DNA of 64,000 bases, taken from contig JAFKLT010000031.1 of NCBI GenBank assembly GCA_017309275.1, positions 62,001 through 126,000 of the forward strand, written 5' to 3'. This DNA is from Sphingomonadales bacterium. Its GTDB lineage: Bacteria; Pseudomonadota; Alphaproteobacteria; Sphingomonadales; Sphingomonadaceae. Below are positions 1-47,061 of this stretch, in pieces (the first letter of the stretch is position 1; each line of letters starts with the position of its first letter). The position numbers and the translations under genes are program-made. The notes below the pieces were generated by a model, which saw nothing but the letters and a program-made list of their open reading frames with translations, was not told the DNA's origin and did no database searches.

Positions 1-1610
1 CCGCCCGGATCATCGACCGGCGACCAGAAGCCGCCCGGCCGCAGCACGATCTCCCCCGTCCCCTCCAGATGCAGCGCGTTGCCGCGCACAAAGACGGTCG
101 ATCGGTCAATGCCAGACACATAGACCCCGGCGAAAGGCACCAAGGCCGGGTTCGCCGCGGGCGGCGGCACGGGAGCACCGCGCACCAAAAGCGTTTCGCC
201 CCACCAGATCCGGTCCACAGGGCCGTCACCACCAGGCTCATACTGGAGGAGCTTCGCGCCAAAACCAGGGTGATCGGTCGCCAGCGACCCCTTATCCGCC
301 TGCTCGATCCTGCCGCTCATCCCTTCAGCCCGAAGGGTCAGGCCTCCAGCAGTGCTGACGAGTTCCAGGCTGCGGCCATCGGACGCGGCATAGCGCCCGA
401 CAAGCCGCTGCGGAGCTTTGACGACACGGAACGCGGAAGGATCGGGCGGGGCCGGAAGCGGCGCGCCGCTTTTCGCGGCCCGGAGCAATTGGATGGCATA
501 AGCAGTCACCTTGCTGGGCCGATATCGGATGAGCCGCCCGTTGACGCTGGCGAAGCACGCCACTCCTGCTTCCGGGTCGACATGGAGGGAGGACGAAAAT
601 GTCGCGACGCCGCCCGTATGATGCAGGACGGCACGGTCGTCGATCCTGACCATGCTCAACCCGCTCGCATAACGGCTGCCGGGGCCAGCCTCATCATTGT
701 CCACATAGCGGGCGAGCAGCGTCCGCGCCGCCTCGTCCGACAGCAACGGCGCTCCCTTGCTTTGGCCAAGGTCCAGCAGGAAGCGAAGATAACCGGCCAT
801 TGCTTTCGCGGAAGCGGAAACGGCACCCGCTGCGGCACTATACTCCCTGAACGGTCCGACACTCATCCGGGATCGGGTGACCAGCGGACGATCCGCCGCG
901 AAGGGGACATAGCCGACCGCATAGCGGGCGCGGTCCTTCAGGAGAATCTGGGCCACGGCCCCATCCATCCCGAGCGGACGCAGCACAAGGTCCTCGATCA
1001 CCTCGGGATGTGGCCGCCCCGTCACCCGCGCGATTACCATTCCCAACAATACATAGCCGATATTGCTGTAGGAGTAGCGTTCGCCCGGCGGGAGACCAGT
1101 CCACAGCCGCGCCTCGGGATTACGCGGAAAAACCGGCGCATCATGCGCCAGTCCGCCGACATGATTGAGCAAGTCCCAAACGGTGATCGGCGCTTCGGGC
1201 AATGGCACGCCCGACACATAGCGGGAAACCGGCGCGCCGAGATCAACCAGGCCCTTTTCCGCTAGAATGTGCAGGCAAAGCGCCGTGATAGACTTGCTGA
1301 TCGAACCGATCTGAAACAATTGGCTGGAATCGACCGGCACCTGCGCCTCGACATCGGCCCAACCTATCCCGATCGTCTCGGTAAGACCATCGCGACCGAC
1401 GATGGTGATCGCCATGCCGGGAAAGCCGACGACAACGAGTTCCTTGCTAGCATAGCCGTGCAACGCGTCGATGGCCGGTCCGTAGATTTGCTTGACCGCA
1501 TGCGGCGTGGCGCCGCTCGAACTCGCTGTGGCCATCGTCCGCGCCGGGAGTGCGGCAACGGCAGCGGCCCCCACCGTCAGCCCCAACATATGCCGCCTGT
1601 TCGTATTCAT
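1..1610 (-). CDS. Serine hydrolase, beta-lactamase/DD-peptidase fold (3' end outside window)
   Basis: The reading frame is open from an ATG at 1610 to the left edge, so the C-terminus is missing (536 codons present). The N-terminus has a twin-arginine-like start (MNTNRRHMLG) and a hydrophobic stretch, so export is likely. The class C beta-lactamase-like signature is clear: SISK at residues 103-106 (nucleophile Ser103, Lys106) and a YSN motif inside RYSYSNIGYV. Proteins of this family include D-aminopeptidases, esterases and peptide hydrolases. It lies 32 bases after the D-aminoacylase gene on the same strand, probably cotranscribed, which favours action on D-residue peptides or amides. The family is secure; the substrate is an inference. 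Confidence 0.88.
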   Translation of the reverse strand, partial: MNTNRRHMLGLTVGAAAVAALPARTMATASSSGATPHAVKQIYGPAIDALHGYASKELVVVGFPGMAITIVGRDGLTETIGIGWADVEAQVPVDSSQLFQIGSISKSITALCLHILAEKGLVDLGAPVSRYVSGVPLPEAPITVWDLLNHVGGLAHDAPVFPRNPEARLWTGLPPGERYSYSNIGYVLLGMVIARVTGRPHPEVIEDLVLRPLGMDGAVAQILLKDRARYAVGYVPFAADRPLVTRSRMSVGPFREYSAAAGAVSASAKAMAGYLRFLLDLGQSKGAPLLSDEAARTLLARYVDNDEAGPGSRYASGLSMVRIDDRAVLHHTGGVATFSSSLHVDPEAGVACFASVNGRLIRYRPSKVTAYAIQLLRAAKSGAPLPAPPDPSAFRVVKAPQRLVGRYAASDGRSLELVSTAGGLTLRAEGMSGRIEQADKGSLATDHPGFGAKLLQYEPGGDGPVDRIWWGETLLVRGAPVPPPAANPALVPFAGVYVSGIDRSTVFVRGNALHLEGTGEIVLRPGGFWSPVDDPG

Positions 1611-1642
1611 GGCGCATGCTCCTCATTGTTAGAAATCGGCTT

Positions 1643-4597: not shown

Positions 4598-5731
4598 TTG
4601 CACGACCTCCTGACTCTCGACACGCCCTGCCTCCTGCTGGATCGGGATATTCTTCATAAGAATATCGACACGATGGCCGAACGCTGCCGTGATATGGACA
4701 TTGCGCTACGTCCGCATGTGAAGACGCCCAAGTCGCTGCCGGTCGCCGCCGCCTTTGCCGCATCGGGCGCACAGGGCTTCTGTGTCTCGACGTTGAAGGA
4801 AGCCGAAACATTTTTTGCGGCAGGCTATACCGATCTTTTCTACACCGTGCCGATCGACGCGGCGAAAATCCCGCGCGCGGCTGCAATGCTTCGCGCTGGT
4901 CACGACCTCTCGCTGCTTGTCAGCAGTCCGGCCGGACTGCCCGCCATCGCCGAGCGAGGCGCCACGGAAAAAGTGGTGCTGCCGATGTGGGTCGAAATCG
5001 ACGTCGATGGCTATCGCACCGGCATTCCGAGCGACAGCGAGGATCTAGCGGCCGCGATCCGGCTGATTCAGGATCATCCGCATCTCTCGCTGCGCGGCAT
5101 CATGTCCTATGGCGGCGATTCCTATACGCGCCGGACACGAGACGCCGTGGCAGCGCTTACCGAGACCCACCGCCTCGCCCTGCTGAAGGCCGCCGATAAG
5201 GTACAGGCGATGGGCTATGCCCGCCCGAAACTCAGCTTCGGCTCGACACCCGCCACCCGTCACGCCGAAACGCTCGAGGGGATCGACGAGGTGCGCTGCG
5301 GCATCTACGCCTTCCAAGACCTGTTCCAGGCCGGGATCGGCGCTTGTGGGCAGGACGAAATCGCCCTTTCGGTGCTGACGACGGTCATCAGCCACAGCCC
5401 CCACCTCAACCGCTTCACCATCGATGCCGGCGGCTTGGCGCTGTCGAAGGATCGCAGCACACAGGGCAATGATTTCGACGCGGGCTTCGGCCTGGTCTGC
5501 GACATGGCGACGGGTGACGCGATCGCGGGGCTGTATGTCGGCACCGTCAGTCAGGAAATCGGCATCGTGTCGCACATTGACGGCAAGCCGATCGATTTGG
5601 CCCGCTTTCCGGTTGGAAGCCGCCTGCGGATCCTGCCCAACCATGCCGACATGACCGCCGCGGCCTACGAGCAATATCACGTGTTGACCCCCGGTGGGAT
5701 CGAGATCTGGACGCGCGCCAACGGCTGGTAA
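4598..5731 (+). CDS. D-threonine aldolase / D-serine dehydratase-like PLP enzyme (alanine racemase fold)
   Basis: 377 aa. The start is TTG at 4598, two codons after an in-frame TAG, so no upstream start exists; the next ATG (near 4672) would remove the conserved LDTPCLLLDRD strand. The fold-type III N-terminal domain carries the PLP lysine in RPHVKTPK (Lys42). The C-terminal divalent-metal site reads PNHADM (His349, Asp351). HxD at this site is characteristic of D-threonine aldolases, whereas eukaryote-type D-serine dehydratases carry HxC. Likely reaction: retro-aldol cleavage of D-threonine or related D-beta-hydroxy amino acids; D-threo-3-hydroxyaspartate dehydratase is an alternative. A symporter and a deacylase follow. 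A 7-bp-arm GC hairpin (5732-5759) lies just after the stop. Confidence 0.87.
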   Translation: MHDLLTLDTPCLLLDRDILHKNIDTMAERCRDMDIALRPHVKTPKSLPVAAAFAASGAQGFCVSTLKEAETFFAAGYTDLFYTVPIDAAKIPRAAAMLRAGHDLSLLVSSPAGLPAIAERGATEKVVLPMWVEIDVDGYRTGIPSDSEDLAAAIRLIQDHPHLSLRGIMSYGGDSYTRRTRDAVAALTETHRLALLKAADKVQAMGYARPKLSFGSTPATRHAETLEGIDEVRCGIYAFQDLFQAGIGACGQDEIALSVLTTVISHSPHLNRFTIDAGGLALSKDRSTQGNDFDAGFGLVCDMATGDAIAGLYVGTVSQEIGIVSHIDGKPIDLARFPVGSRLRILPNHADMTAAAYEQYHVLTPGGIEIWTRANGW

Positions 5732-12453: not shown

Positions 12454-14706
12454 TCACCAGCGGAAGCTGACGTCGGCAATCACCGTACGCCCCTGGCCAT
12501 AATAGCAACGGTCGATACCGATACAGGAGGAGACATAGGTCTTGTCGGCGATATTGTTCGCCTTCAGCGCGAGGTTGAGGCCGCTCAATGCGGACGCCCA
12601 TCGCCCGAGATCGAAGCGCAGCGATGCATCGAACAAGAGAAAATCGGGTACCCGGACACCATTGGCCGGATCGCCGAAGGTCGAACCGCTATAGCGTGCG
12701 CCGGCACCAGCCACCGTACCCGCTGGCAGATCGGCGCTGACCCATAGCGAGGCATTATGCTTGGGGACGGCAACCGGTCGCTTTCCGAGTTCGGGCGCGG
12801 TGAACCGCACCAGCGTAACGGGATTGAGGCCGGTGACGGTCGTATTGCTCTTGGTCACCTCAGCATCGAGATAGGTGTAGGCACCGATGACACGTACCGT
12901 CGGTGCGATCGCGACATGCGCCTCCAGCTCGAAGCCGCGCATCGTGATCTCGCCGGTCGCGCGCCTGAAACTCGGGTTCGCCTGGTCGGTCGTCAGCACA
13001 TTCTGTCGCCGGAGATCGAAGACCGAGGCCGTGACGAAGCTGTCCCCTCCCCTCGGCTGGAACTTGATCCCGGCTTCATATTGCCGGCCGGTTTCGGGTC
13101 GGAAGAACGCCCCGGATGCATCGGTACCGCTCAACGGCGTAAAGGCTTCCGAGTAGCTGATGTAGGGCGCCAGACCGTTATCGAACAGATGAAGCAAGGC
13201 GACGCGCTTCGTGATCGCATCATCCTTCTGGCTCGTGCGGGCCGTCGCGGGATTGGTCGCAGCTCGGTTGAGCGTGATGTTCGTCGTCCAGTCCTTGCGC
13301 AGGCCGAGCAACAGCCGCCAGCCGTGAAGCTTGATCTGGTCCTGAAAATAGAGACCGACCTGCCGCTTGGTGAAGATGGCATTGGTCGATCGCACGAAGG
13401 TTGGAAGCGTCTGGTAATAAGTCGGCGCAAAGACGTCGAGCGTCAGACCGTTCGCAAGTTCGCGGTTCGTGTCGTTTTCGAACCGCTGCCAATCGAGCCC
13501 GATCAGCACGTCGTGCGTGAACGGCCCTGTCTCGAATGTAGCCTGCAAATTATTGTCGATCGCCAGGTCGTTCGAACTCTCCTGCAAGCCAAAGGCCTGC
13601 CGGCCTGCGATCCTCAGGTTCGACGACAGGCTGGTGATGTATATGGTCTTTGCATCGAGACTGTTCTGCGACAGGCGGACGTTCTGGCGAAAAGCAATCG
13701 CATCGCTGAAGCGGTGCTCGAACTGGTAGCCGACCGAGAACAGCTCGCGATTCCACTTCTGATAGTTCGGATCCCCGGTGAACAGGCTGCGTGAAATCTT
13801 CCCGTTGGGATTGGCGAGGACGGTACCGACCGTCGGCAGCCAGTTGAGGGTCGAACCGAGAAAGTCGTCCTTCTGGTAGTGCGCGAGCAGCGTCAGCGAC
13901 GTCGACGCGCCCGGCTGCCAGGTCAGCGCGGGAGCAACCAGCACGCGCTGGCGGTTCGAGAAATCGACCCTGTCGTCGGTATCGAAGAACATGCCGGTGA
14001 AGCGCGCGAACAGGCTACCGCTTTCGTTCACCGAGCCGGTGACATCCAGAAGACCCTGCTTGCGACCGAAACTGCCATAGCGCAGCATGATCTCGCCGCC
14101 CGTCTCCGCGCGCGGGCGCCGGCTGACCATGTTGATGAGGCCGCCTGGCGTAGCCTGTCCGTACAGGACCGAAGCCGGCCCCTTGACCACCTCGATCCGC
14201 TCGAACAGCAACGGGTCAAGCGCGGCCGACGCATAGAGCGTTCCGCCGAGCCGGAGCCCGTCGATATAGGTGTTATTGGCGGTACCGCTGCTGCCGTCAT
14301 TTCCGAAACCACGAATGGCGATCGCATCGCCGCCGTAGGTCGCGCTGCCCTTGGTTCCCGCGAAGACGCCCGAGCTATACCCGACGGCGTCGGCGATCGA
14401 GAGGACATTTCGCGAGCGAATGTCTTCCTCGTCAATGACAGAAATGGACTGAGGCGTCTCGACGAGCGGCGTGTCGCTCTTCGTACCGGTGCTGCCTTCC
14501 TTGCTGAGCTTGCCGCTCACGATGATGTCCGATCGGCCAGCATGATCCTCGGCTTCTGCCCCGTCTACGGCGGAAGCCGACGAACCGGCCTCCTCCGCTA
14601 GGGCTGCGGCCGCCGCGCCGGGAAATGCCACTGCTGCCAGCGACAGGGAGGTCAACAGCATTTGACGCCGAAAATTCCGATCCACGCATTTGGTCTCGCT
14701 ACGCAT
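12454..14706 (-). CDS. TonB-dependent siderophore receptor
   Basis: 750 aa. The ATG at 14706 (MRSETKCVDRNFRRQ) follows a GGGGGG ribosome site; a TTG four codons upstream is less likely. A signal peptide is followed by a plug domain (about residues 60-230: SDIIVSGKLSKE, TPQSISVIDEEDI, ERIEVVKGPASVLYGQATP, GGLINMVSRRP) typical of ferric-siderophore receptors of the FhuE/FpvA/FoxA type, then a 22-strand barrel ending in an aromatic residue (DVSFRW). It takes up ferric siderophores with TonB energy. It is divergent from a penicillin-acylase-family gene and near a periplasmic Fe-binding protein. Ligand unknown. Confidence 0.93.
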   Translation of the reverse strand: MRSETKCVDRNFRRQMLLTSLSLAAVAFPGAAAAALAEEAGSSASAVDGAEAEDHAGRSDIIVSGKLSKEGSTGTKSDTPLVETPQSISVIDEEDIRSRNVLSIADAVGYSSGVFAGTKGSATYGGDAIAIRGFGNDGSSGTANNTYIDGLRLGGTLYASAALDPLLFERIEVVKGPASVLYGQATPGGLINMVSRRPRAETGGEIMLRYGSFGRKQGLLDVTGSVNESGSLFARFTGMFFDTDDRVDFSNRQRVLVAPALTWQPGASTSLTLLAHYQKDDFLGSTLNWLPTVGTVLANPNGKISRSLFTGDPNYQKWNRELFSVGYQFEHRFSDAIAFRQNVRLSQNSLDAKTIYITSLSSNLRIAGRQAFGLQESSNDLAIDNNLQATFETGPFTHDVLIGLDWQRFENDTNRELANGLTLDVFAPTYYQTLPTFVRSTNAIFTKRQVGLYFQDQIKLHGWRLLLGLRKDWTTNITLNRAATNPATARTSQKDDAITKRVALLHLFDNGLAPYISYSEAFTPLSGTDASGAFFRPETGRQYEAGIKFQPRGGDSFVTASVFDLRRQNVLTTDQANPSFRRATGEITMRGFELEAHVAIAPTVRVIGAYTYLDAEVTKSNTTVTGLNPVTLVRFTAPELGKRPVAVPKHNASLWVSADLPAGTVAGAGARYSGSTFGDPANGVRVPDFLLFDASLRFDLGRWASALSGLNLALKANNIADKTYVSSCIGIDRCYYGQGRTVIADVSFRW

Positions 14707-14721
14707 TACGCCCCCCAATTA

Positions 14722-14828
14722 TGTCATTGACACAGCTAATGACAGAAAAATATCATGAGCGGTGTATGGCGCAGTTTGGCCATATGCAAGAGCGAAAGAC
14801 AGTTTTATGTCAAATGGTGTCATTAGCT
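14722..14828. promoter_or_regulatory. TGTCATT-box repeats between TonB receptor and acylase genes
   Basis: The divergent gap carries AGCTAATGACA (14734-14744) and its perfect inverse TGTCATTAGCT (14818-14828), 73 bases apart, plus a third TGTCATT (14722-14728) that makes a local dyad with the first (TGTCATT, nine bases, AATGACA). The local sequence is AT-richer than its surroundings. This looks like multiple binding sites of one regulator serving both divergent genes. The sequence is not an obvious Fur box; the regulator is unknown. Confidence 0.5.
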
Positions 14829-14926
14829 ATTTTTTGGTGCAAGCATGCCATCACCCCGCCATCGCTCCCGCTGCGCCCAACGCGCAGGACGAATGCCGAA
14901 GACTGGCAGGATAAAGGAGCGTGACT

Positions 14927-29848: not shown

Positions 29849-29947
29849 GCGTCGCTTCCACTTTACTGATTTGAAGATCCGCCCGGCGCAGTCGATAGGC
29901 CCGGGCCTGCCACTGTCGGCATGGATGGTCGAAATCCGGGAGTTCAA

Positions 29948-32037: not shown

Positions 32038-32427
32038 TGAGCGCGCGTGCCATCTGGAGTTTACGAACTGGCGGGTTGTGCCGCTCCCTAACTCAGCCCC
32101 ATATCGGATACCAGTCTTCGCAGCCCGTTGCATACGGCGAGCTGGGGACAGTCCCCGCTCAGGGTCATCGGGCCCGGAACAAGCGCGCAGACGCCAATAC
32201 CCATGTCAGTGCCTCGAGCCAGGTCCCGCTGGGCCACCAGCCGCTTTGTCACATTCAGCGTCGTCCGCGGGAAATTTTTTGATCGCAACCGAGAAAGTCA
32301 GATTTAAACCCCCGCCACCACTCCATCGTACGCGAACCGAAAGAGCAAAGGCTGGTCCGTTTTTGGCCGGCTGCAGCCGCCATCGTGGCCGCGCGCATGA
32401 TAAAAATCGAACGGCGCGCCAATGGGG
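32038..32427. other. Intergenic region without a gene
   Basis: No convincing coding frame. It contains a 13-base palindrome (GGGGAC-A-GTCCCC, 32144-32156) and holds the promoter of the LysR gene at one end and the 3' end of the CapA-family gene at the other. The palindrome could be part of a terminator for the CapA operon, but no T-run follows. Confidence 0.5.
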
Positions 32428-33858: not shown

Positions 33859-35135
33859 TATTGGACGCCCGCGGTGGCGAGCAGGATGCCGAGGCCGACG
33901 GTCGCGCCGTGAAGGCTCTTGGTCTTTTCGACGTCGATCCATTCATCCAGCGAGTGCGCGCGGCCGCCCTGCCCGCCCGAACCGATCGTCACGGCCGGGA
34001 TACCAAGGCTCATCGCCATATTCGAGTCGGTCGAAGAAAAGGAAGGGCGCGGATCCAGCCCCTTGGCGCGGATGATCGCATCGGCGTTGCGGACGATCTG
34101 CTGCGTCGCGGCGGTCTCGCCCGCGGGACGGTCGCCGATCAACTTGATATCGGCGGCAACCGGCCCTTCCTTGACAGAGCGCGCGGCATTTTCGCCTTCG
34201 ACACTCTTCTTGACGATCTCCAGGAACGCCTGCTCGACCTTGGCGAGTTCAGCCGGGCTTTCCGACCGCATGTCAAATTCCATGAAGACTTCATTCGGGA
34301 TCGAATTGACCGACGTGCCACCACCGGTGACGCTGGCAGCGTATGTGGTCTTGGGCTTCGCGGGAGCCGGGATTTTGTAGAAGTCGACGACCGTCTGGCT
34401 CATCGCCGTCATCGGGTTGACCAGCCCGAATGCGCCATAGCTATGCCCGCCTGGGCCCTTGTAGGTTATGCGGTAGCGCTTCGACCCGACACCGCCGGTG
34501 ACGATCCGCGACGCATCGGTCCCGTCCATCGAAAAAAAGGCCTTCACCCGGTCCTTATACTTACCCTTTGTCAGCAGATAGCGGACGCCGCGCAAATCGC
34601 CGGGCCCTTCCTCGCCGACATTGCCGACGAAGATGATATCCTGCTTCACCTTGACGCCTGCCTCTTTCATCGCGCGCGCATAGGCGAGCAGCACCGCGAG
34701 GCTGCGTGTGTCGTCGCCGATACCGGGGGCATAGAGGCGCGTACCATCACGACGGACCTTGACCGGCGTCCCTTCGGGAAAGACCGTATCGAGATGCGCA
34801 GCGATCATCACTGCCGGGCCGCCGGCGGGACCGGTGCCGCGATAGACGCCCATCGCATTGCCCTCTTCGTCGATCTCGACATCCTGCAGACCGGCTTCCT
34901 TCAGCATTTCGGCATAGGCCGCGGCGCGGGCCGCCTCCTTGAACGGAGGCGCCGGGATTTCGGTGAGCTTGATAATCTCTTCGACCATGCGGTCATGGTC
35001 GCGGTCGAGAATCTTCGAGGCCGTCTCGTACCCCTTCGTCTTGAGCACAGCCTCGGGCTTTGCCTGCGATGCCGCCTGTACCGGAGACGCTGCCAGCAAG
35101 AGCGTCGCGAGGGTCAGCAAGGCCGGGTTACGCAT
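33858..35135 (-). CDS. M20-family metallopeptidase, exported
   Basis: 425 aa. The ATG at 35135 (MRNPALLTLATLLLAASPVQA) follows AAGGAA and gives a clean signal peptide. Zinc ligands are in AAHLDTVFPEG, GIGDDTRS, VGEEGPG and GGRAHSLDEW. It is highly similar in order and motifs to the M20 enzyme at 23771-25057, for example EIIKLTEIPAPPFKEA versus EIIRLTEIPSPTFGEA. It lies between a symporter and a CapA-family gene in the TonB receptor operon and probably frees amino acids for that symporter. Confidence 0.93.
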   Translation of the reverse strand: MRNPALLTLATLLLAASPVQAASQAKPEAVLKTKGYETASKILDRDHDRMVEEIIKLTEIPAPPFKEAARAAAYAEMLKEAGLQDVEIDEEGNAMGVYRGTGPAGGPAVMIAAHLDTVFPEGTPVKVRRDGTRLYAPGIGDDTRSLAVLLAYARAMKEAGVKVKQDIIFVGNVGEEGPGDLRGVRYLLTKGKYKDRVKAFFSMDGTDASRIVTGGVGSKRYRITYKGPGGHSYGAFGLVNPMTAMSQTVVDFYKIPAPAKPKTTYAASVTGGGTSVNSIPNEVFMEFDMRSESPAELAKVEQAFLEIVKKSVEGENAARSVKEGPVAADIKLIGDRPAGETAATQQIVRNADAIIRAKGLDPRPSFSSTDSNMAMSLGIPAVTIGSGGQGGRAHSLDEWIDVEKTKSLHGATVGLGILLATAGVQ

Positions 35136-35168
35136 GAAAGTTCCTTTCGCAATGATGGGGAGACGCAT

Positions 35169-36485
35169 TCAAACCTTTGACGCCGCAGCGGCGTCGATTT
35201 GCTGGACTGCGGTATCGGCTTCGCAATCGGCAACCGCTGCTTCCTCGGTCCCGAGCACGCCTTCCCAGCGTGCGACCGCCGTACAGGCCACGGCATTGCC
35301 GACGACGTTGGTCGCGGTACGGCCCATGTCGAGAAAATGATCGATGGCGAGGACGAGCAACAATCCCGCTTCGGGCAAGTTCACGAACGACAGGGTCGCC
35401 GCCACGACCACCAGGCTGGCGCGCGGCACGCCTGCCACGCCCTTTGATGTCACCATCAGGATCAGCAGCACGGTGAATTGCTGCCACAAGTCCATCTCGA
35501 CGCCATCGGCCTGCGCGATGAACATGATCGCAAATGCCATGTACATCATCGACCCGTCGAGGTTGAACGAATAGCCGAGCGGCAGCACGAAACTGGAAAT
35601 GCGCCGCGGTACGCCGCCCTTGTCGAGCGCCTCGAGCGTGCGCGGAAAGGCAGCCTCCGACGAGGCGGTCGAAAAGGCGAGCAGAATCGGCTCACGAATA
35701 TTGCGCAGCAGCACGATCGGGTTGGCGCGCAGCAATATCCAGGCGGCGGCAAGAAGGACGACCCACAGCAGGGCCAGCCCCAAATAGAACACGCCGATGA
35801 AGTAACCGAAGGTCACGACGATGCCGACACCGCGCTCGATGACCGCTGCGGCGACCGCCGCGAAGACCGCGATCGGCGCGACACGCATTACATATTCGGT
35901 GATCTTCAGCATCACCGCGACCATTTCCTCGACCAGCCCCGCAAGCCGCTGGCCGCCAACGCCAAGGCTGGTAATACCGACGCCGACGAACAGCGACAGG
36001 ACCACGATCTGCAATATCTCGTTGTTCGCCATCGCATCGAACATCGACGTCGGCACCAGATGGGTGACGAATTTGGCGATGCTGAAATCGGCGGTAGCGA
36101 GGCTGGCTGATCCGGTCGTCGTCGGCAAGTCGAGGTCGAGGCCGACGCCGGGTTTGAAAATGTTGACAAGCACCAACCCGAGCAGGAGCGAGATGAAGCT
36201 CGCTCCGACGAACCAGGCAAGCGCGCGACCGCCGATCCGCCCGAGCGCCGAAGTGTCGGCCATATGGACGATACCCGACACCAGCGTGGCGAACACCAGC
36301 GGTGCGATGATCATCTTGATCAGCCGCAGGAACAATGTGCTGACGATCGAAAAATAGCCGGCGATCGCGGCGAGCCGGCCCTGCCCTGCCGCCGTGCCGT
36401 CGGATATCGCCGCGTTGATCGTCCAGCCGACTATCAGTCCAAGCGCGAGGCCGATAAAGATATAGAGCGTCAGGCGCTTTGCCAC
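35169..36485 (-). CDS. Dicarboxylate/amino acid:cation symporter (DAACS/SDF family)
   Basis: 438 aa from a GTG at 36485, preceded by GGAGA. Family motifs: RLIKMIIAPLVFATLVSGIV, FSTASSEAAFPRTLEALD, and DMGRTATNVVGNAVAC. It is a clear paralogue of the symporter at 5862-7097. It lies 33 bases before the M20 peptidase, so peptide trimming and amino acid uptake are linked. The C-terminal tail is extended and acidic. Substrate (acidic or neutral amino acid) unknown. Confidence 0.93.
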   Translation of the reverse strand: MAKRLTLYIFIGLALGLIVGWTINAAISDGTAAGQGRLAAIAGYFSIVSTLFLRLIKMIIAPLVFATLVSGIVHMADTSALGRIGGRALAWFVGASFISLLLGLVLVNIFKPGVGLDLDLPTTTGSASLATADFSIAKFVTHLVPTSMFDAMANNEILQIVVLSLFVGVGITSLGVGGQRLAGLVEEMVAVMLKITEYVMRVAPIAVFAAVAAAVIERGVGIVVTFGYFIGVFYLGLALLWVVLLAAAWILLRANPIVLLRNIREPILLAFSTASSEAAFPRTLEALDKGGVPRRISSFVLPLGYSFNLDGSMMYMAFAIMFIAQADGVEMDLWQQFTVLLILMVTSKGVAGVPRASLVVVAATLSFVNLPEAGLLLVLAIDHFLDMGRTATNVVGNAVACTAVARWEGVLGTEEAAVADCEADTAVQQIDAAAASKV

Positions 36486-36570
36486 GTTGGTTCTCCATGA
36501 CGGGAGTGAAATTTACCGCTTTGCCGGGTGCGGGTCGGCGCGCGTTCTGGACGACCGCATTTTGAGATCG

Positions 36571-36621: not shown

Positions 36622-36644
36622 ACTCGACCACCCCGTTGGGTAGA

Positions 36645-37586
36645 TTATTCCCAGACCAGCTTCTGCGCGTATTGGCTCATGCCCGTATTGCTGTGGGCAA
36701 TGTTCGGCGCATACTCGAGCTTCCACGCGAACTTGGCGCCCAGTTCGTGCGCCGTCTTGCGACCATAAGCATAGAAAAATTCACCGCGCGCCAGCCGATG
36801 AACGCCTTGCGTCATCGCTTCGGGCGTGCGCGAAAGCTGGTGATGATTGGGATCTGTGTCCGCGGTGCCGAGCAGAATCGTCAGCGGCTTTTCCAGCGCC
36901 GCCTTCAATCCCGCCGCGTCGGTCGGCGCATCTTTGAGCCCATAGGGATATTTGATGGTCAGATCGGGCATCGTGTACCAGCCGGCATTGGCAGCGACAG
37001 CCCGGCTGTATCGTGCATCGGGCCACAGCTCGACGAAGCGATGCACGAACTGCCCGCCCGCCGAATGCCCATAGATCGCATATTGCGGAACCTTGGTCCC
37101 CGTCGCCTTGCGAATGAGGTCGAACATCGGCTCGATCGAGGCGAAGGACCATTGTTCGCGCGGCCGCGGATTGCCGGCCTCATCGACGATATGTCCTACA
37201 TTATACGTCAGCGACGTCGGAAAGTCGGCCATCGAATATTCGGGGGTCAGAACGATATACTGACCCTCTTTGGCATAGGGTATCCATGCATCGCGATACC
37301 CGTCAGCGTTGCGCCCCGCGCCGTGGATGACGAACAGAATAGGCGTCGTCGCGGTTACCTTGTCGGGCATGTAGTAGTGGACCCGCAGCGGCTTTCCTGC
37401 CCAACCGGAGAAGACGAAGCTTCCCGCACCGGGTGTGAGGCTGGGCAATGGCGGTGCCTTGTCCTTCGATGCCTTGGCCAAGACGGCCGCCCCGGCGGTG
37501 GCGGCGGGGCCAAGGGCCCCTCCCGCCGTCACCAGAGCAAGCAGCGCCAGACCGATGGACCGCGCAAAAGCTTTCCGGCGCCACAT
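36645..37586 (-). CDS. Alpha/beta hydrolase (esterase/PHB-depolymerase-like), exported
   Basis: 313 aa. The ATG at 37586 overlaps the stop of the TonB receptor (TGATG), so the two are coupled. Signal peptide (RSIGLALLALVTAGGALG). Oxyanion region FVIHGAGRNADGYRD, nucleophile in IYGHSAGGQFV, acid in LGTADTDPNHH, histidine in NIAHSN. It resembles secreted esterases and dienelactone-hydrolase-like enzymes. Coupling to an outer-membrane receptor implies it acts on the imported ligand, perhaps cleaving an ester or lactone bond. Confidence 0.88.
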   Translation of the reverse strand: MWRRKAFARSIGLALLALVTAGGALGPAATAGAAVLAKASKDKAPPLPSLTPGAGSFVFSGWAGKPLRVHYYMPDKVTATTPILFVIHGAGRNADGYRDAWIPYAKEGQYIVLTPEYSMADFPTSLTYNVGHIVDEAGNPRPREQWSFASIEPMFDLIRKATGTKVPQYAIYGHSAGGQFVHRFVELWPDARYSRAVAANAGWYTMPDLTIKYPYGLKDAPTDAAGLKAALEKPLTILLGTADTDPNHHQLSRTPEAMTQGVHRLARGEFFYAYGRKTAHELGAKFAWKLEYAPNIAHSNTGMSQYAQKLVWE

Positions 37587-40993: not shown

Positions 40994-41977
40994 TCAATCC
41001 TCGTCGCCGTAAATGGAAACCTTCCGCTCGCCCGTGCTGGAAACCTTGCCGCGCGACATGCCCGGGGTGTTGAATGACCAGTCAGCGGTTCCACCCGGAC
41101 CGGTGACGATCACCCCGCCGGAACCGCCCAATTCACCGATCTCGGTCATTACGGCGTCAGCAGCCTGTTTGGGCGTCTCGCCTTTCATGCGGATACGCGC
41201 GCAGATTTCATGCGCGGCACCGACGCGAATGAAAAACTCGCCTGCTCCGGTCGCCGAGACGGCACAGGCACGATTATCGGCATAGGTTCCCGCGCCGATC
41301 ACAGGCGCGTCGCCGATACGTCCCCAGCGCTTTCCTGTCCGTCCCCCAGTCGAAGTCGCAGCGGCAACATTGCCTGCCGCGTCGAGCGCGACCGCCCCCA
41401 CCGTTCCGAACTTCAGGTCAACGTCGTACCAGCTCAGCTTCTCCGCTTTCATCCGTTCAAGCTGCTTTCGGCGTTCGGGCGTCGCAAACCAGCTCGGATC
41501 CACCTGCGGCAGTCCCTGCTCGATCGAGAAACGGTCCGCACCCTCCCCGCCAAGAAAGACATGCGGGCTCTTTTCCATCACAGCACGTGCGAGACCGACC
41601 GGGTTACGTGTGCGGGTTACACCTGCAACGGCACCCGCGGCGCGCGTTCGGCCATCCATAATCGCGGCATCGAGTTCGTTGCGCCCTTCCCACGTGAACA
41701 CCGCGCCGCGCCCGGCATTGAAGTGGGGATCGTCCTCCAGCACCTTGATAGCCGCCTCGACAGCATCCAGCGCGCTGCCATTCGCATCGAGCACCTTGGC
41801 GCCGGCGTCGAGCGCCGCGTTCAGGCCGCCGCGAAGGGCTGCGTCCTGTTCGGGGGAGGTCTTGCCTCGCGCCATCTCGCCGGACCCGCCGTGAATAACG
41901 ATCGTCCATCTAGGCTGCGCGTAAGCGGAGGGCGCCGCGAGAAGACAAAGCGCACCGAGCAGGTTCAGGAAACGCAT
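40994..41977 (-). CDS. Isoaspartyl peptidase / plant-type L-asparaginase, periplasmic
   Basis: 327 aa. ATG at 41977 (MRFLNLLGALCLLAAPSAYA) follows GGGAG and gives a signal peptide. Ntn-hydrolase: WTIVIHGGSGEMARG at the N-terminus, HFNAGRGAVFTWEGRNELDA, and the self-cleavage site KFGTVGAVALDAAGN with Thr192 as nucleophile, then TSTGGRTGKRWGRIGD. It hydrolyses beta-aspartyl (isoaspartyl) dipeptides and L-asparagine. Beta-linked aspartate occurs in non-ribosomal peptides and damaged proteins. Third gene after the P1 peptidase and DauA-type genes in one unit. Confidence 0.93.
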   Translation of the reverse strand: MRFLNLLGALCLLAAPSAYAQPRWTIVIHGGSGEMARGKTSPEQDAALRGGLNAALDAGAKVLDANGSALDAVEAAIKVLEDDPHFNAGRGAVFTWEGRNELDAAIMDGRTRAAGAVAGVTRTRNPVGLARAVMEKSPHVFLGGEGADRFSIEQGLPQVDPSWFATPERRKQLERMKAEKLSWYDVDLKFGTVGAVALDAAGNVAAATSTGGRTGKRWGRIGDAPVIGAGTYADNRACAVSATGAGEFFIRVGAAHEICARIRMKGETPKQAADAVMTEIGELGGSGGVIVTGPGGTADWSFNTPGMSRGKVSSTGERKVSIYGDED

Positions 41978-42027
41978 GCAAGAAAACTCCCGATAAGGCC
42001 GGTCCAGAATCTTCCCGGTCACGATTG

Positions 42028-43164
42028 TCAGCTGAACAGGCGCTCAGGGCGGATTTGGTATGGCTCAACGCCTTGTTCCAAAAGCAGTTCGGGCCAGGGA
42101 CGATCGAACAGCAGGGCTTCGGCGGCAAGCGCCATCGCCGGCGACGTCTGCAAGCCATAGCCACCCTGACCGGCAAGCCAGAAGAATCCTGGCGCATCGA
42201 CAGCAAAGCCTGTGGTCGGCACTTTATCCGCCACAAAGCTCCTGAGCCCCGCCCATTTTAGGGCGATGCGCTCGACAGACAACGACGTCGCCTCTTCGAC
42301 GCGCCACGCCGCAAGCGCCATTTCATAGTCGTCCGGTTGCACATCGCACGCAGGCGACGGCGTGACGTCCATCGGAGAGGCGAGAAGACGCCCCGCGTCG
42401 GGCAGCATATAGAAGCCATCGTCAAATACAGTCTTCAGGAACGGCCAATCCGAGACATCCAGGCCCGCGGGCGGGTCGAAGCCGATAATGGTCCGCCGCA
42501 GAGGTATCAGCCCAAGCGGACGCACGCCCGCCATTACCGCCAGTTCGTCGGCCCAAGCACCGGACGCGTTGACGACGATCCGCGCGGCGTAGCTTTCGCT
42601 GACCGTATCGACGATCCAGTCGGCGCCGCTGCGTGCTATTCCCGTCACGCCCGCGTTGAAATGTATCTCGCCCCCCGCTGCCCGCAGCGCGCGAGCGTTC
42701 GCCTGAAGGAGCAGGTCGGCGTCCAGCTTTCGTCCGCCGGTGTCGACCAGGCCGGCAACGGCAGCTCCGTTCCCGACCTTCAGCGCGGGAACGATCGCTT
42801 GCATCTCGCTCGGCCCCACTTGCGAGATATCGTCGGAGAAGCGCCGCATTTCGGCTTCGAGCGCCGTCAACTGGTCCATCGTTTCGGAGGTTGCGAAGAA
42901 CATGGCGGATTTTGTCTGCCACAACGGGGGAAGTTCTTCTCCTCCCGGGGGATTGGCAAAGAAGTGACGGCTAGCCGCCGTCAGTCCGCGAACGGCATCG
43001 TCGCCGATCCCGAAGTGATAAAAGGTCGCGCTGCGCCCCGACGAATGGTAGCCAAGCGCGCCTTCGCGTTCGAGAAGCACGGTATCAGCATGCTGCGCGA
43101 ACCGTGCAGCCGCCGACACGCCGGCGATACCGCCACCGATCACCAAAATATCGACCCGCCTCAC
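42028..43164 (-). CDS. dauA: D-arginine dehydrogenase-type FAD-dependent D-amino acid dehydrogenase
   Basis: 378 aa from a GTG at 43164 that overlaps the P1 peptidase stop by four bases. The FAD site is DILVIGGGIAGVSAAARF with LLEREGALGYHSSGRSA; the latter, AVRGLTAASRHFFANPP, GVRPLGLIPLRRT, WAGLRSFVAD and FFWLAGQGGYGLQTSPAM follow Pseudomonas DauA closely, including the active-site histidine (His40) and arginine. DauA oxidises D-arginine, D-lysine and several other D-amino acids to 2-oxo acids in the cytosol. The substrate range here is inferred; the family is secure. Its neighbours are a peptidase able to act on D-residues and an isoaspartyl peptidase. Confidence 0.88.
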   Translation of the reverse strand: MRRVDILVIGGGIAGVSAAARFAQHADTVLLEREGALGYHSSGRSATFYHFGIGDDAVRGLTAASRHFFANPPGGEELPPLWQTKSAMFFATSETMDQLTALEAEMRRFSDDISQVGPSEMQAIVPALKVGNGAAVAGLVDTGGRKLDADLLLQANARALRAAGGEIHFNAGVTGIARSGADWIVDTVSESYAARIVVNASGAWADELAVMAGVRPLGLIPLRRTIIGFDPPAGLDVSDWPFLKTVFDDGFYMLPDAGRLLASPMDVTPSPACDVQPDDYEMALAAWRVEEATSLSVERIALKWAGLRSFVADKVPTTGFAVDAPGFFWLAGQGGYGLQTSPAMALAAEALLFDRPWPELLLEQGVEPYQIRPERLFS

Positions 43165-44414
43165 CGGACATTCCCCTTTGTCGGCGCCGGGCGGCGCGTC
43201 GCTTTCGGGCGATAGCGAATAATGGCCTCCCTTACCGCCGCAATATCGAGCGCGTCTCCTCTTACAGCCTCCGCATCTGCCGTCGCCTGCCGCTCGACCG
43301 TCGTCGCCATCAGCAGCGAATTATAGATCGCTTCCTCGGCCGCCTCCGACACCGCCACGAAAAGCGGCGACATCGCGTCGTTGGCCAACTCCGGATAGGT
43401 TGCGACGGCGGCACGTCGAGCGGCCGTTCGACGAACGCCATCCGCCGTGGAAAAGGCGATGGCGTAATCCCCGGACCCGTTCGAAAAGGCCGCACCGGTC
43501 CGTGCCAGACCAGCGATCGCGCGATGAGCAAGCCGGGTCAGGTTCCGATCGCTAAGCGGTGCATCGGTCGCGACCACCAGGATGATCGAGCCGTCAGCAG
43601 AGGCACGCTCGCTATGCTCGCGCAGATAATAGCGGCCGAGAGCCTTTCCGACGGGGACACCGTCCATCGTCAGCGTCCCGCCATAGTTTGTTTGCACCAG
43701 GACGCCGACGCGATAGCCGCCCAACGCCTGCGGCAGAACGCGCGAACTCGTTCCAATGCCGCCCTTCCAGCCAAAGGCCATCGTGCCGGTGCCCGCGCCG
43801 ACACTTCCTTCCGCGACCGGCCCGCTGGTCGCGGCCTCGATTGCGGCGATCACGTCCGACCGACCGATCACGCGCTTTCGGATATTGTTCAGGACGCCAT
43901 CGTTGGTCTCGCCGACAACGGCGTTGACCGACCGGACATTTTCATTGCCCTGCCGCGCGAGGGTCCAATCGAGAATGCCTTCGATCGCCGGCGCGACGCT
44001 CAACGTATTGGTCAGAACGATCGGCGTCTCGATCTCGCCCAACTCCGCGATCTGCGTCGCACCCGCAAATTTTCCGAAACCATTGGCGACGACGATGCCC
44101 GCCGGCACCTTGTCCTGGAAAATATTGCCCCCGTGCGGAAGGATGACAGTCACCCCGGTCCTAACGTCGGGGCCCTCGACACGCGTCACCTGGCCGACCC
44201 GGACACCGTCGACGTCGGTGATCGAATTGAGGGGGCCGGGCTCGAATATTCCCGGCGCGATGCCGATGTCGCGAGCACGGACGCGCGACTGGTCGATGAC
44301 CTGCGCTGACGACGATTCGCTCCCACCCATGCCGATGGCGATGCCGGCACCGGCCAGCAACGCCGCCACCGCACCTCGTCGCCCTCGCCTCAGGCGATGG
44401 CCAAGCGTGCGCAA
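43161..44414 (-). CDS. P1-family aminopeptidase (DmpA / beta-peptidyl aminopeptidase type), exported
   Basis: 417 aa from a TTG at 44414 that opens a signal peptide (basic LGHRLRRGRRG, then AVAALLAGAGIAIG); the frame is open to 44585, so a longer start is possible. Motifs: NSITDVDGVRVGQVT, TGTMAFGWKGGIGTSSR, VLVQTNYGG and the cleavage site ADG-SIILVVATDAPL, making Ser276 the new N-terminal nucleophile. DmpA is an L-aminopeptidase/D-amidase-esterase and BapA cleaves beta-peptides, so this enzyme suits peptides with D- or beta-residues. The operator at 44552-44574 lies just upstream and DauA follows with a four-base overlap. Confidence 0.9.
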   Translation of the reverse strand: MRTLGHRLRRGRRGAVAALLAGAGIAIGMGGSESSSAQVIDQSRVRARDIGIAPGIFEPGPLNSITDVDGVRVGQVTRVEGPDVRTGVTVILPHGGNIFQDKVPAGIVVANGFGKFAGATQIAELGEIETPIVLTNTLSVAPAIEGILDWTLARQGNENVRSVNAVVGETNDGVLNNIRKRVIGRSDVIAAIEAATSGPVAEGSVGAGTGTMAFGWKGGIGTSSRVLPQALGGYRVGVLVQTNYGGTLTMDGVPVGKALGRYYLREHSERASADGSIILVVATDAPLSDRNLTRLAHRAIAGLARTGAAFSNGSGDYAIAFSTADGVRRTAARRAAVATYPELANDAMSPLFVAVSEAAEEAIYNSLLMATTVERQATADAEAVRGDALDIAAVREAIIRYRPKATRRPAPTKGNVR

Positions 44415-44551
44415 GTCGGACCATTGGCGAGAGACGCCAGCGTAAATACCAAAAATGTTGAAGAACAAGCGCAATGATCCGCTTTGCTGGCTGACAGATG
44501 TTGCTTGCCTAATCCGCAATGGGCAATCCGAACAATATCTATCCGACGGCA

Positions 44552-44574
44552 GCCTATAGAAACTTTCTATAGGC
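44552..44574. promoter_or_regulatory. 23-base perfect palindrome, LysR-type operator
   Basis: Arms GCCTATAGAAA and TTTCTATAGGC around a single C are perfectly complementary. The core ATAG-N7-CTAT has the T-N11-A form of LysR sites. It overlaps the last codons and stop of the LysR gene itself (the complement encodes YRKFL and TAG) and lies about 140 bases upstream of the P1 peptidase start. Very likely the binding site that controls the P1-DauA-isoaspartyl peptidase operon. Confidence 0.78.
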
Positions 44575-45450
44575 CTGAAAGGCACTCTTCAGATGCGTTA
44601 GCAGAACGGTCGCCAGCTTCGACGGCGGCCGATTCTGCAAATAGATGGCATAGACGTTGAACGGAATAGGTGGCTGGAGCGGCTTGAAGGCAATGTCGGG
44701 CGTCGCGATTGCCTGTGCCGTAAAACTGTCGACGATCGATACGCCCGCCCCCGACCGGACGAGCGCCGCCGCGACAAAGAAGGTCTGTGATGAGACGACG
44801 TCGTCCAGCATGACGCCCGTCCGGGCGAATTCCTCGGACAACAGATTCCCCATGGGACCGCTCTTGACCGTGGTTATGAATCGATGCCCTTCGAGGGCGC
44901 TCAGCGGCATGCGCGGAGTGTCGCATTGAATGGCGCCCGATTTATAGATCGCGACCAGTTCTCCCGTGCCCAGCACGTCGAAATCGACCGGAGCTGTCGA
45001 AGGTACATCATAGCTGATCACGAGATCGGTCTCGCGATCATATAGCTTACGCACCATATCCTCGTGATGTGCGGTATGAAGTTCCAGCGACACGCCTTCA
45101 TGCTTGGCAAGAAAGGCCGAGACAGCATCGGGGATCGCGCCGAGCCCAAGTGAGGGCAGCACGGAAACGCGCAGCGTCCTCCCCTTACCGAACCTGAGAT
45201 TGCGGCTTGCCCGCCTCAGGTGGTCAACGCGCTTCTGGACTTCGGCAACCTCGATAAAAAGCTCATGCGCGTCCTCGGTCGGGACCAGCCGCCCTTTGGT
45301 CCGTTCGAAAAGCGACAGGCCGAGACTGGTTTCCGCATAACGCAGAATCTTTGTGACCGAAGGCTGCGAAACATTCAGCATCCGCGCCGCGGCGCTGACA
45401 GATCCAGTCACATATACCGCGTGGAAGATCTCGATCTGACGCAATTTCAC
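44554..45450 (-). CDS. LysR-family transcriptional regulator
   Basis: 298 aa from a GTG at 45450 (MKLRQIEIFHAVYVTGSVS). Helix-turn-helix SAAARMLNVSQPSVTKILRYAE; effector domain from about residue 92 (TLRVSVLPSLGLGAIPDA). The N-terminus and length resemble LysR proteins of opine/octopine and amino acid catabolism (OccR/NocR-like). It lies directly upstream of the P1 peptidase operon on the same strand, and its 3' end contains the palindromic operator, so it probably regulates that operon and the receptor operon carrying the matching site at 40717-40737. Confidence 0.93.
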   Translation of the reverse strand: MKLRQIEIFHAVYVTGSVSAAARMLNVSQPSVTKILRYAETSLGLSLFERTKGRLVPTEDAHELFIEVAEVQKRVDHLRRASRNLRFGKGRTLRVSVLPSLGLGAIPDAVSAFLAKHEGVSLELHTAHHEDMVRKLYDRETDLVISYDVPSTAPVDFDVLGTGELVAIYKSGAIQCDTPRMPLSALEGHRFITTVKSGPMGNLLSEEFARTGVMLDDVVSSQTFFVAAALVRSGAGVSIVDSFTAQAIATPDIAFKPLQPPIPFNVYAIYLQNRPPSKLATVLLTHLKSAFQAYRKFL

Positions 45451-45909
45451 AGCTTATCCTGTCATGTCTGCCTTGCTCTCCTGCCAAACGGCCACCGCCC
45501 ACTTTCGCGAAATTTGGCTTCCTGCAGAGACTCAAGGATATGCCGCGACAACAAGCCAATCAAGCAGGGGGGATTGACGAATGGCCGCGTGTGGACGGCT
45601 CTCCGCTGGCGAGCGGCTTCTGGCAAGGCGCAATGTGCCGGTCGTTGCGGCCATATGCCCGTCTTTGCAATGCGGCCCCATCGAGCCCCCCGGGCCAGGA
45701 TGCCTTCGATCGAACCGGGACCCGGCCAAGCTGCGTCGTATCGCGTCCAGGTCCGTCGGTGCCATGAAGGCACTGCCGGTGCATTGATGGGCACAGTCTC
45801 GTCGACGGGTACCGATAGGTCGCAAAGAAGCGGCGTTGGATAATCGCGCGAGTGCCCCTATCAGCCCGACAGGAAACGCTGGTCGATATTCATAGGGAGC
45901 AAGTTGTTC
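45451..45909. other. Divergent intergenic region, no gene recognised
   Basis: About 460 bases between the LysR (start 45450, minus) and the aminotransferase (start 45910, plus). Several frames are open in this GC-rich DNA, but none has a ribosome site with a family resemblance. It must hold both promoters; I saw no strong dyad or TATA-like element. Confidence 0.5.
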
Positions 45910-47061
45910 ATGCCGGTCGATATTGACCCCTTTCACGCCATCGCCATCAGCCGTCTCGCGCATCGGCTGCGGGCCGAAGGGCAGTCCGTGATTCACATGG
46001 AGTTTGGTCAGCCGTCCACCGGTGCTCCAGCGGCAGCGATCGATGCCGCGCACCGCATTCTGGATACCGATGGCATGGGCTATTGGGAGAGTCCGGAACT
46101 GAAGGCGCGGATCGCGGCGCATTATGACGAAGCCTATGGGGTTACCGTCAATCCCGAACAGGTCATTCTCACCTGCGGCGCGTCGCCCGCGCTGGTGCTT
46201 GCCCTTTCCTGTCTGTTCTCGCCGGGCGCCCGGGTCGCGCTGGCGCGGCCCGGCTATGTCGCCTATCGCAATACGCTCAAGGCACTTCATCTGGAACCCG
46301 TCGAGCTTGCCTGCGGTGAAGCCGAACGGTTTCAGATCACCGCCGAGGCGGTCGAGCGACTGGAGCCCGCCCCCGATGGGCTGATCGTTGCAAGCCCGGC
46401 CAACCCAACCGGCACGATCATCCCGTCCGACGAGCTCCGAGCGCTGGCGGAGGTCTGCAAGCGTCGCGGCATCGCGCTTGTCTCCGACGAAATCTATCAC
46501 GGGCTGAGCTATACGCTTCCCGCCGAAACCATCTTGAAGCACGACCCGGATGCGCTGGTCGTCAACAGCTTTTCCAAATATTTCAGCATGGCGGGCTGGC
46601 GCCTTGGGTGGCTCATCGTTCCAGAGCGGCTGGTCGACGCCGCGCGCGCACGAATGGGCAATCTGTTCCTGACCCCGCCCTCGCTTGCCCAGCATGCCGG
46701 CCTGATCGCGTTTGACTGCCGTGACGAGCTCGAAAGCCATATCAGCACCTATGCGCGTAATCGCGAACTTCTGCTCGACGCCCTTCCCAAGATGGGGCTG
46801 CGGCGGATCGCGCCTCCCGATGGCGCTTTCTATATCTACGCCGATGTCGGCCACCTGACGGACGACAGTCTCGCCTTCTGCGAAGCCTTGCTGCGCGACA
46901 CGGGCGTGGCCGTGGCGCCCGGGCTGGATTTCGATCCGGTCGATGGCAAGGAGTTCATCCGCCTCAGCTTCGCGGTCTCAACCGATTTGATCCAAGAGGC
47001 GATCCGGCGCATTGCGCCATGGCTGGCTGCCCAGGAAGCCGTAACTACAGCCACCCGGTGA
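45910..47061 (+). CDS. PLP-dependent class I/II aminotransferase
   Basis: 383 aa; ATG at 45910, or a TTG two codons upstream that is closer to GGGAG. The PLP lysine is in VNSFSKYFSMAGWRLGW; also HMEFGQPSTGAP at the N-terminus, ASPANPTGTIIP, SDEIYHGLSY and the arginine in FIRLSFAVS. It resembles aspartate/aromatic-type aminotransferases of uncertain specificity. Divergent from the LysR gene and close to the D-amino acid and isoaspartyl genes; it could process the 2-oxo acids made by the DauA-type enzyme or aspartate from the isoaspartyl peptidase. Confidence 0.92.
   Translation: MPVDIDPFHAIAISRLAHRLRAEGQSVIHMEFGQPSTGAPAAAIDAAHRILDTDGMGYWESPELKARIAAHYDEAYGVTVNPEQVILTCGASPALVLALSCLFSPGARVALARPGYVAYRNTLKALHLEPVELACGEAERFQITAEAVERLEPAPDGLIVASPANPTGTIIPSDELRALAEVCKRRGIALVSDEIYHGLSYTLPAETILKHDPDALVVNSFSKYFSMAGWRLGWLIVPERLVDAARARMGNLFLTPPSLAQHAGLIAFDCRDELESHISTYARNRELLLDALPKMGLRRIAPPDGAFYIYADVGHLTDDSLAFCEALLRDTGVAVAPGLDFDPVDGKEFIRLSFAVSTDLIQEAIRRIAPWLAAQEAVTTATR

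What the first reader, a model, noticed from the sequence alone, without database searches (positions are those of the whole stretch)
1..47061. Large D-amino-acid and acyl-peptide scavenging island with built-in iron uptake
Within 47 kb lie D-serine dehydratase, a DTA-type enzyme, a DauA-type dehydrogenase, two N-acyl-D-amino-acid deacylases, two D-aminopeptidase-like serine hydrolases, a DmpA-type peptidase, an isoaspartyl peptidase and two M20 peptidases. Two symporters, a siderophore receptor, a periplasmic Fe-binding protein and a penicillin-acylase-family enzyme accompany them. Together they would dismantle non-ribosomal-type peptides: acyl cap, D-residues, beta-aspartyl links, ornithine and hydroxy-amino acids. 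This is the best candidate in the window for an undescribed system, a xenosiderophore or lipopeptide digestion locus.
Basis: inference. Interest (0 to 1): 0.78.

Follow-up and report, generated by a model that had tools for sequence, protein, structure and literature searches.

The report
Bacterial polyaspartate digestion gene cluster
Inside the reported region sits a compact gene cluster that appears to let a Sphingopyxis bacterium import and digest polyaspartate, an acidic polymer of mixed left- and right-handed units, and it includes a protein shaped like a known enzyme that flips amino acids between the two forms.

Summary
The gene inventory is right; the reading as one xenosiderophore/lipopeptide island is not. 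The 47 kb is several modules. The firmest is 32428-45450 (minus strand): LysR, S58 peptidase, DauA-like dehydrogenase, isoaspartyl peptidase, TonB receptor, an alpha/beta-hydrolase, SDF symporter, "M20 peptidase", CapA-family protein. The alpha/beta-hydrolase is poly(aspartic acid) hydrolase-1 (PDB 6ve6, 91% identity) and the "M20" is a second poly(aspartic acid) hydrolase (7ljh, 93%): the PahZ1/PahZ2 pair. All nine genes recur in the same order in two other Sphingopyxis genomes with different flanks. Looser PahZ1 loci in other Sphingomonadales often carry PahZ2 or SDF symporters.

A second module (23771-32133) is conserved in one relative. The left third (D-Ser, N-acyl-D-amino acid, FhuA-like receptor, PvdQ-like acylase) is not conserved as a unit; siderophore digestion is not supported there, nor excluded.

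The parts
44554..45450 (-). LysR regulator at the head of the conserved unit
   Evidence: Pfam; 94% and 86% in G123, G157
43161..44585 (-). S58 (DmpA/BapA-type) aminopeptidase, secreted by eye
   Evidence: PF03576; PDB 2drh, 1b65, BapA 3n2w
42028..43164 (-). DauA-like FAD D-amino-acid dehydrogenase, no signal seen
   Evidence: 3nyc 1.8e-82
40994..42022 (-). Isoaspartyl peptidase (Asparaginase_2), signal by eye
   Evidence: PF01112; beta-aspartyl-peptidase 277 against 567 bits
37586..40471 (-). TonB-dependent receptor, candidate polyaspartate receptor
   Evidence: Pfam; 40% (592 bits) receptor in a PahZ1 locus of G147
36645..37586 (-). PahZ1, poly(aspartic acid) hydrolase-1, signal by eye
   Evidence: 6ve6 2.1e-175, 250/275 identical
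35169..36485 (-). SDF-family acidic amino acid / dicarboxylate symporter
   Evidence: PF00375; DctA/GltP models below cut-off
33858..35168 (-). PahZ2-type poly(aspartic acid) hydrolase (M20), signal by eye
   Evidence: 7ljh 1.1e-248, 376/405 identical
32428..33858 (-). MslH-like CapA-family protein, proposed periplasmic peptide epimerase
31147..32133 (-). LysR of the second conserved module
   Evidence: 73% in G109
29921..31084 (+). Threonine-synthase-like PALP enzyme, second module
   Evidence: 79% in G109; 235.8 against 301 bits
28275..29759 (-). TAP-like alpha/beta hydrolase, second module
   Evidence: Pfam; 73% in G109
27310..28266 (-). OCD-family protein closest to iminosuccinate reductase BhcD, second module
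   Evidence: 410.7 against 500 bits; 71% in G109; start
25061..26719 (-). PepSY_TM membrane protein, second module
   Evidence: PF03929; 54% in G109; start
23771..25057 (-). Second M20 protein (48% to PahZ2), second module
   Evidence: 48%; 71% in G109
4598..5731 (+). D-threo-3-hydroxyaspartate dehydratase-like enzyme; about 42% identical to the gene next to CapA in G123 and G157, which the window unit lacks
12454..17257 (.). FhuA/FoxA-like receptor and PvdQ-like acylase, not part of the conserved unit

Best explanation
The firm core of the finding (32428-45450, minus strand) is a polyaspartate utilisation locus. The TonB receptor brings racemic, mostly beta-linked aspartyl polymer or oligomer into the periplasm. 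Secreted PahZ1 cuts internal beta-amide bonds and secreted PahZ2 trims oligomers. The isoaspartyl peptidase, and probably the S58 aminopeptidase, clear beta-linked and N-terminal remnants that PahZ1 leaves. The SDF symporter takes up the free acidic amino acids. The cytoplasmic DauA-like dehydrogenase removes the D-form, possibly to iminosuccinate, which the neighbouring BhcD-like reductase could turn into L-Asp. The MslH-like CapA protein most likely epimerises C-terminal D-Asp/L-Asp on oligomers so that L-selective hydrolases do not stall. SHOWN by computation: identity of PahZ1 and PahZ2 by sequence, gene order and its conservation, MslH fold and conserved residues. INFERRED: the substrate of every other enzyme, the direction of flow, cell locations (signal sequences judged by eye), the whole epimerase role (my odds 0.35), the DauA substrate and the BhcD link. 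The confidence below is for the locus acting on polyaspartate or closely similar beta/D-aspartyl oligomers, not for each step.
Against: No activity is shown. PahZ2 is common in the genus (20 of 79 others) and mostly without PahZ1 (86% or more in 2 of 79, 54% in one), so PahZ2 may have a wider natural substrate. In the 14 looser PahZ1 loci S58 and DauA were in 0, IaaA in 1, a CapA match in 1, and TonB receptors were not more frequent than in controls (7/14 against 10/31). Conversely no PahZ1, IaaA or S58 match (E 1e-5) appeared in the 77 CapA loci from named genomes. Five of the 14 PahZ1 loci were fetched knowing an M20 match lay on the contig; without them PahZ2 is in 2 of 9 and SDF in 5 of 9. 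The CapA protein scores 256 against the MslH equivalog cut-off of 700, and a second CapA in the window keeps 7 of 8 residues, so they do not separate epimerase from hydrolase. P. aeruginosa DauA is, by recall, inactive on D-Asp.
Confidence: 0.8

Rival explanations
1. The natural role is scavenging of aged, isomerised and racemised aspartyl peptides (iso-Asp and D-Asp from succinimide chemistry) in detritus; man-made polyaspartate is only a look-alike made by the same chemistry. The unit works the same way on a different substrate. This is compatible with the best explanation.
For: PahZ2 is widespread without PahZ1; PahZ1-PahZ2 loci occur in Sphingomonadales genomes drawn without regard to polymer exposure; beta-lactamase-fold enzymes (paenidase, LACTB) have D-aspartyl endopeptidase activity (PMC12148432 abstract and passages), and S12-type genes stand near the MslH-like gene in 19 of 37 sphingomonad loci.
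Against: The window unit carries PahZ1, whose Pedobacter relative needs three Asp units in a row of subsites (PMC4456602); ordinary peptides rarely offer that.
Confidence: 0.4
2. The CapA-family protein is a metal-dependent hydrolase or a binding/transport helper for acidic peptides, not an epimerase.
For: Most calcineurin-like relatives listed are phosphatases, nucleotidases or nucleases; the eight residues are family-wide; the score is below the MslH equivalog cut-off.
Confidence: 0.4
3. The whole island digests xenosiderophores or lipopeptides.
For: FhuA/FoxA-like receptor, Fe-binding protein, PvdQ-like acylase, D-Ser and hydroxyaspartate-type lyases in one region; a similar mixture on contig C101 of the same genome.
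Against: No conservation as a unit; the hydrolases of the conserved core are polyaspartate hydrolases.
Confidence: 0.07
4. Modules of unrelated function lie side by side in an accessory region by chance; only PahZ1 and PahZ2 share a function.
For: Four to five regulators, several strand switches; the modules are found apart in other genomes.
Against: The nine-gene order is kept in two genomes; S58-DauA-IaaA is kept as a triple in G105 (80-81%); SDF recurs with PahZ1.
Confidence: 0.08

Closest known systems
PahZ1 / PahZ2 polyaspartate hydrolases (PDB 6ve6, 7ljh; assignment to Sphingomonas sp. KT-1, and of 7ljh to PahZ2, by recall)
   Same: 91% and 93% identity over the aligned mature proteins.
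   Different: Here they sit in a nine-gene unit with receptor, symporter, isoaspartyl peptidase, D-amino-acid dehydrogenase, S58 peptidase and MslH-like protein. The listings showed no description of that context; the 2003 gene papers are not held (tried one), so the published KT-1 gene context was not checked.
Lasso peptide epimerase MslH (CapA family)
   Different: Has a signal sequence by eye, stands in a catabolic unit beside an M20 enzyme; 32% identity in the structural alignment; 256 bits against the 700-bit equivalog cut-off.
CapA/PgsA of poly-gamma-glutamate synthesis
   Same: Same Pfam family (PF09587); acidic homopolymer of D and L residues (PMC9266682 passages).
   Different: Degradative context; no poly-gamma-glutamate synthase among the genes scanned in the unit.
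DauA D-arginine dehydrogenase
   Same: 280.7 bits; positions R222, Y249, R305 kept in the printed alignment (roles recalled).
   Different: Pocket positions changed: E87 to A, Y53 to I, H48 to F, T50 to H (read by eye; roles recalled); D-Arg is an unlikely substrate.
Beta-hydroxyaspartate cycle enzymes
   Same: BhcD-like reductase 27310-28266 (410.7 bits, cut-off 500) and BhcC-superfamily enzyme 4598-5731.
   Different: No complete cycle; BhcC score 110 against 690.

Membership tests
PahZ1 poly(aspartic acid) hydrolase | High full-length similarity to a characterised PahZ1 | tested here: met
   6ve6 2.1e-175, 250/275 identical
PahZ1 poly(aspartic acid) hydrolase | Cleaves beta-Asp amide bonds | not testable with these tools
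   needs an assay
PahZ2 poly(aspartic acid) hydrolase | High full-length similarity to a solved M20 poly(aspartic acid) hydrolase | tested here: met
   7ljh 1.1e-248, 376/405 identical
Polyaspartate utilisation locus | PahZ1 and PahZ2 conserved together with uptake genes in other genomes | tested here: met
   G123, G157; PahZ1 with PahZ2 within 20 kb in 7 of 14 loci, five of them preselected; SDF 7/14 against 0/31 controls
Polyaspartate utilisation locus | Growth on, and induction by, polyaspartate | not testable with these tools
   needs culture work
MslH-type peptide epimerase | MslH fold over the full length | tested here: met
MslH-type peptide epimerase | Asp11, Glu44, Asn87, His88, Asp91, His259, His261, His295 | tested here: met
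   D56 E89 N134 H135 D138 H297 H299 H330; in 70 related ORFs, of rows with a letter there, 66/66, 66/66, 67/67, 66/67, 67/67, 69/69, 69/69, 68/69
MslH-type peptide epimerase | NCBIfam MslH equivalog cut-off, 700 bits | tested here: not met
   256.3 bits: not the lasso-peptide enzyme itself; 'works like it' stays open
MslH-type peptide epimerase | Reversible epimerisation of a C-terminal residue | not testable with these tools
   needs an assay
Xenosiderophore digestion island | Receptor, acylase and D-peptidases conserved as a unit | tested here: not met
   only a paralogous mixture in the same genome
Xenosiderophore digestion island | Acylated siderophores used as substrate | not testable with these tools
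   needs metabolomics
Beta-hydroxyaspartate cycle | BhcB, BhcC and BhcD above equivalog cut-offs | tested here: not met
   BhcC 110/690, BhcD 410.7/500; best BhcB-model score 59.6/550

The most novel reading that the evidence does not exclude
The CapA-family protein is a catabolic peptide epimerase: it interconverts D and L forms of the C-terminal residue of aspartyl oligomers in the periplasm, so that L-selective hydrolases can digest a fully racemic polymer. Its relatives after peptide transporter genes in rhizobia and beside M20/S12-type hydrolases in sphingomonads would make this a general answer to D-residues in peptide scavenging, so that enzymatic peptide epimerisation exists in degradation as well as in synthesis.
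Probability: 0.35. Interest if true: 0.78.

Novelty: new variant of a known kind. Interest (0 to 1): 0.55.

Why it matters
Thermal polyaspartate is sold as a biodegradable dispersant and scale inhibitor, yet the studied PahZ1 cannot cut after D-Asp (PMC4456602), and how bacteria finish a half-D polymer is open as far as I know. This locus names the missing parts (receptor, symporter, dimer and D-residue enzymes) and a candidate for the stereochemical step. If the MslH-like protein epimerises peptides during degradation, it would be a new use of a fold known only from peptide synthesis, and directly testable with one purified protein and oligo-Asp.

Tried and rejected
Whole 47-kb island as a unit: rejected. 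S58 neighbourhoods in 7 other genomes of the family (from 8 of 99 with a match, own included) showed no other unit gene except weak SDF, LysR, TonB, S12, S9, aminotransferase and two-component matches, so S58 alone is not a marker. Microcystin degradation (Mlr) was considered from memory and dropped: the NCBIfam and Pfam scans gave no MlrC-type hit; I did not search the genome for mlr genes. Opine and cyanophycin catabolism were considered from memory; PahZ identity made them unnecessary and neither was tested. Lasso-peptide locus: the CapA protein is MslH-like, but no precursor or maturation genes were looked for beyond the scanned ORFs. Beta-hydroxyaspartate cycle: not complete. PvdQ-like loci elsewhere have S58 matches in 3 of 10 and S12 matches in 2 of 10, a lead not followed. 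Mobile element: GC is even (0.622 in the unit, 0.627 left, 0.638 right), no Rfam hit; the ARAGORN tRNA-Ser at 43422-43514 lies inside the conserved S58 gene and has no Rfam support, so I take it as false. Plasmids: PahZ1 matches in 8 records and CapA matches in 131, all under 60% identity.
Full report
WHAT WAS CHECKED. The window is G000:C2:62001-126000 of a 5.1-Mb genome. I called ORFs and scanned them with Pfam, NCBIfam and PDB sequences.

THE CORE IS A POLYASPARTATE LOCUS. Counted from the printed alignments these are 250 of 275 and 376 of 405 identical residues. They are separated only by an SDF symporter (35169-36485). That 7ljh is PahZ2 and that both come from Sphingomonas sp. KT-1 is recall; the KT-1 gene papers are in the reference list seen.

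CONSERVATION AS A UNIT. With the CapA protein, 2 of 79 other genus genomes have a match of 86% or more (G123, G157) and 4 (G105, G159, G161, G165) one of 63-65%. In G123 and G157 the order LysR, S58, DauA-like, IaaA, TonB receptor, PahZ1, SDF, PahZ2, CapA is the same, at 88-94% and 84-92% identity, and the 80 kb fetched around each holds no other window gene beyond a DTA gene next to CapA and weak TonB-receptor matches. After that DTA, G123 has a gene like threo-3-hydroxy-L-aspartate ammonia-lyase (302 bits, cut-off 452). S58-DauA-IaaA recur as a triple at 80-81% in G105 without PahZ1 in the 20 kb fetched. PahZ1 is rare in the genus (86-88% in G123 and G157, 54% in G147; 3 of 79), PahZ2 common (20 of 79). 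In seven of the PahZ2-only genomes looked at (G132, G156, G127, G105, G121, G131, G161), 20-25 kb held no other unit gene except a DauA-like fragment in G161 and a distant TonB receptor match in G105.

OUTSIDE THE GENUS. PahZ1 relatives (E 1e-50) are in 34 of 396 genomes of the order, own included. I fetched the surroundings of 14 of the 33 others: the best-matching ones plus five (G279, G245, G247, G280, G257) known to have an M20 match on the same contig. PahZ2 was within the fetched stretch in 7 of 14 (2 of 9 without the five), an SDF symporter in 7 of 14 (5 of 9), against 1 and 0 of 31 control pieces, which were stretches fetched for other window genes and not a random sample. TonB receptors were not enriched (7/14 against 10/31), IaaA was in 1, DTA in 2, S58 and DauA in none. 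L261 has PahZ2-IaaA-PahZ1 side by side; L281 (G147, 8% contamination) has PahZ1, two SDF genes and a receptor 40% identical to ours.

ITS NEIGHBOURS ELSEWHERE. A scan of named genomes gave 77 loci. In the 37 sphingomonad loci the gene families found with it are TonB receptor (30), S12-type hydrolase (19), PahZ2-like M20 (17), histidine kinase (15) and response regulator (13); in the 40 others, mostly rhizobia and Burkholderiales, dipeptide-type ABC transporter genes (ATPase in 22, permeases in 18 each, binding protein in 12). M20 is the adjacent same-strand gene in 11 of 69 loci. DauA-like matches were in 5 and DTA in 4 of 77. No PahZ1, IaaA or S58 match appeared in these 77. So its partner across genera is peptide uptake and an exopeptidase-type M20, not PahZ1.

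MECHANISM. Thermal polyaspartate is about 70% beta-linked with equal D and L units; Pedobacter PahZ1 cuts beta bonds only after L-Asp, and leaves DDL, DDD and the two dimers tested (PMC4456602; abstract, Introduction and passages). The unit supplies what that leaves open: IaaA for beta-dimers, S58 for N-terminal or beta-residues, DauA-like enzyme for D-residues, SDF for uptake, and the MslH-like protein for the stereochemical block. MslH works reversibly on a C-terminal residue (PMC10406935), M20 enzymes of this type are by recall C-terminal exopeptidases, and the two genes are adjacent. The DauA-like enzyme keeps the carboxylate-binding positions of DauA but has lost the acidic residue that holds arginine (roles recalled). 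All of this paragraph after the first two sentences is inference.

THE REST OF THE 47 kb. 23771-32133 (M20, PepSY_TM, BhcD-like, TAP-like hydrolase, threonine-synthase-like enzyme, LysR) recurs in G109. DsdA has matches (E 1e-60) in 2 of 79 others, the PvdQ-like acylase in 10 of 79; in the stretches fetched around them the rest of the left third is not there, though G107 has DsdA with a LysR (56%), an aminotransferase (61%) and an S12 match. The same genome has a similar mixture on C101. I leave siderophore or acyl-peptide use open for that part.

VERDICT. Observation confirmed; interpretation partly supported; new variant of a known kind. Interest 0.55, mainly for the possible catabolic peptide epimerase.

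Noticed in passing
window 54881-62966: Second CapA gene (57143-58336, MslH model 123 bits) between a prolyl-oligopeptidase-like S9 enzyme, a TonB receptor and a gene that looks like an AbgT-type transporter (by eye, not scanned): possibly another peptide-scavenging locus.
   Followed up: partly
window 58464-61364: That TonB receptor frame is interrupted by an in-frame stop near 61047, so it is either broken or misread in the assembly.
   Followed up: no
G000 contig C101, about 150-176 kb (L213, L214): Paralogous mixture: DTA (59%), DsdA (50%), BhcB-like (429 against 550 bits), BhcD-like, Dpp7-like, S12 twice, PvdQ-like, siderophore-type TonB receptor.
   Followed up: partly
L170, L173, L176, L182, L186, L187, L189, L192, L203, L204 and others: In Mesorhizobium-type loci the MslH-like gene often follows a dipeptide-type ABC transporter operon, sometimes with an S12-type gene; many such genes lie on rhizobial plasmids (131 plasmid records).
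   Followed up: partly
L270, L271, L272: PvdQ-like acylase with an S58-family match about 1 kb away in three Sphingopyxis genomes.
   Followed up: no
window 43422-43514: ARAGORN calls a tRNA-Ser inside the conserved S58 gene; no Rfam support, probably false.
   Followed up: partly
window 22630-23738: PaiB-like FMN-binding gene and an OprB fragment beside it; matches to both and to the small secreted protein 21647-22105 lie on contig C39 of the same genome.
   Followed up: no
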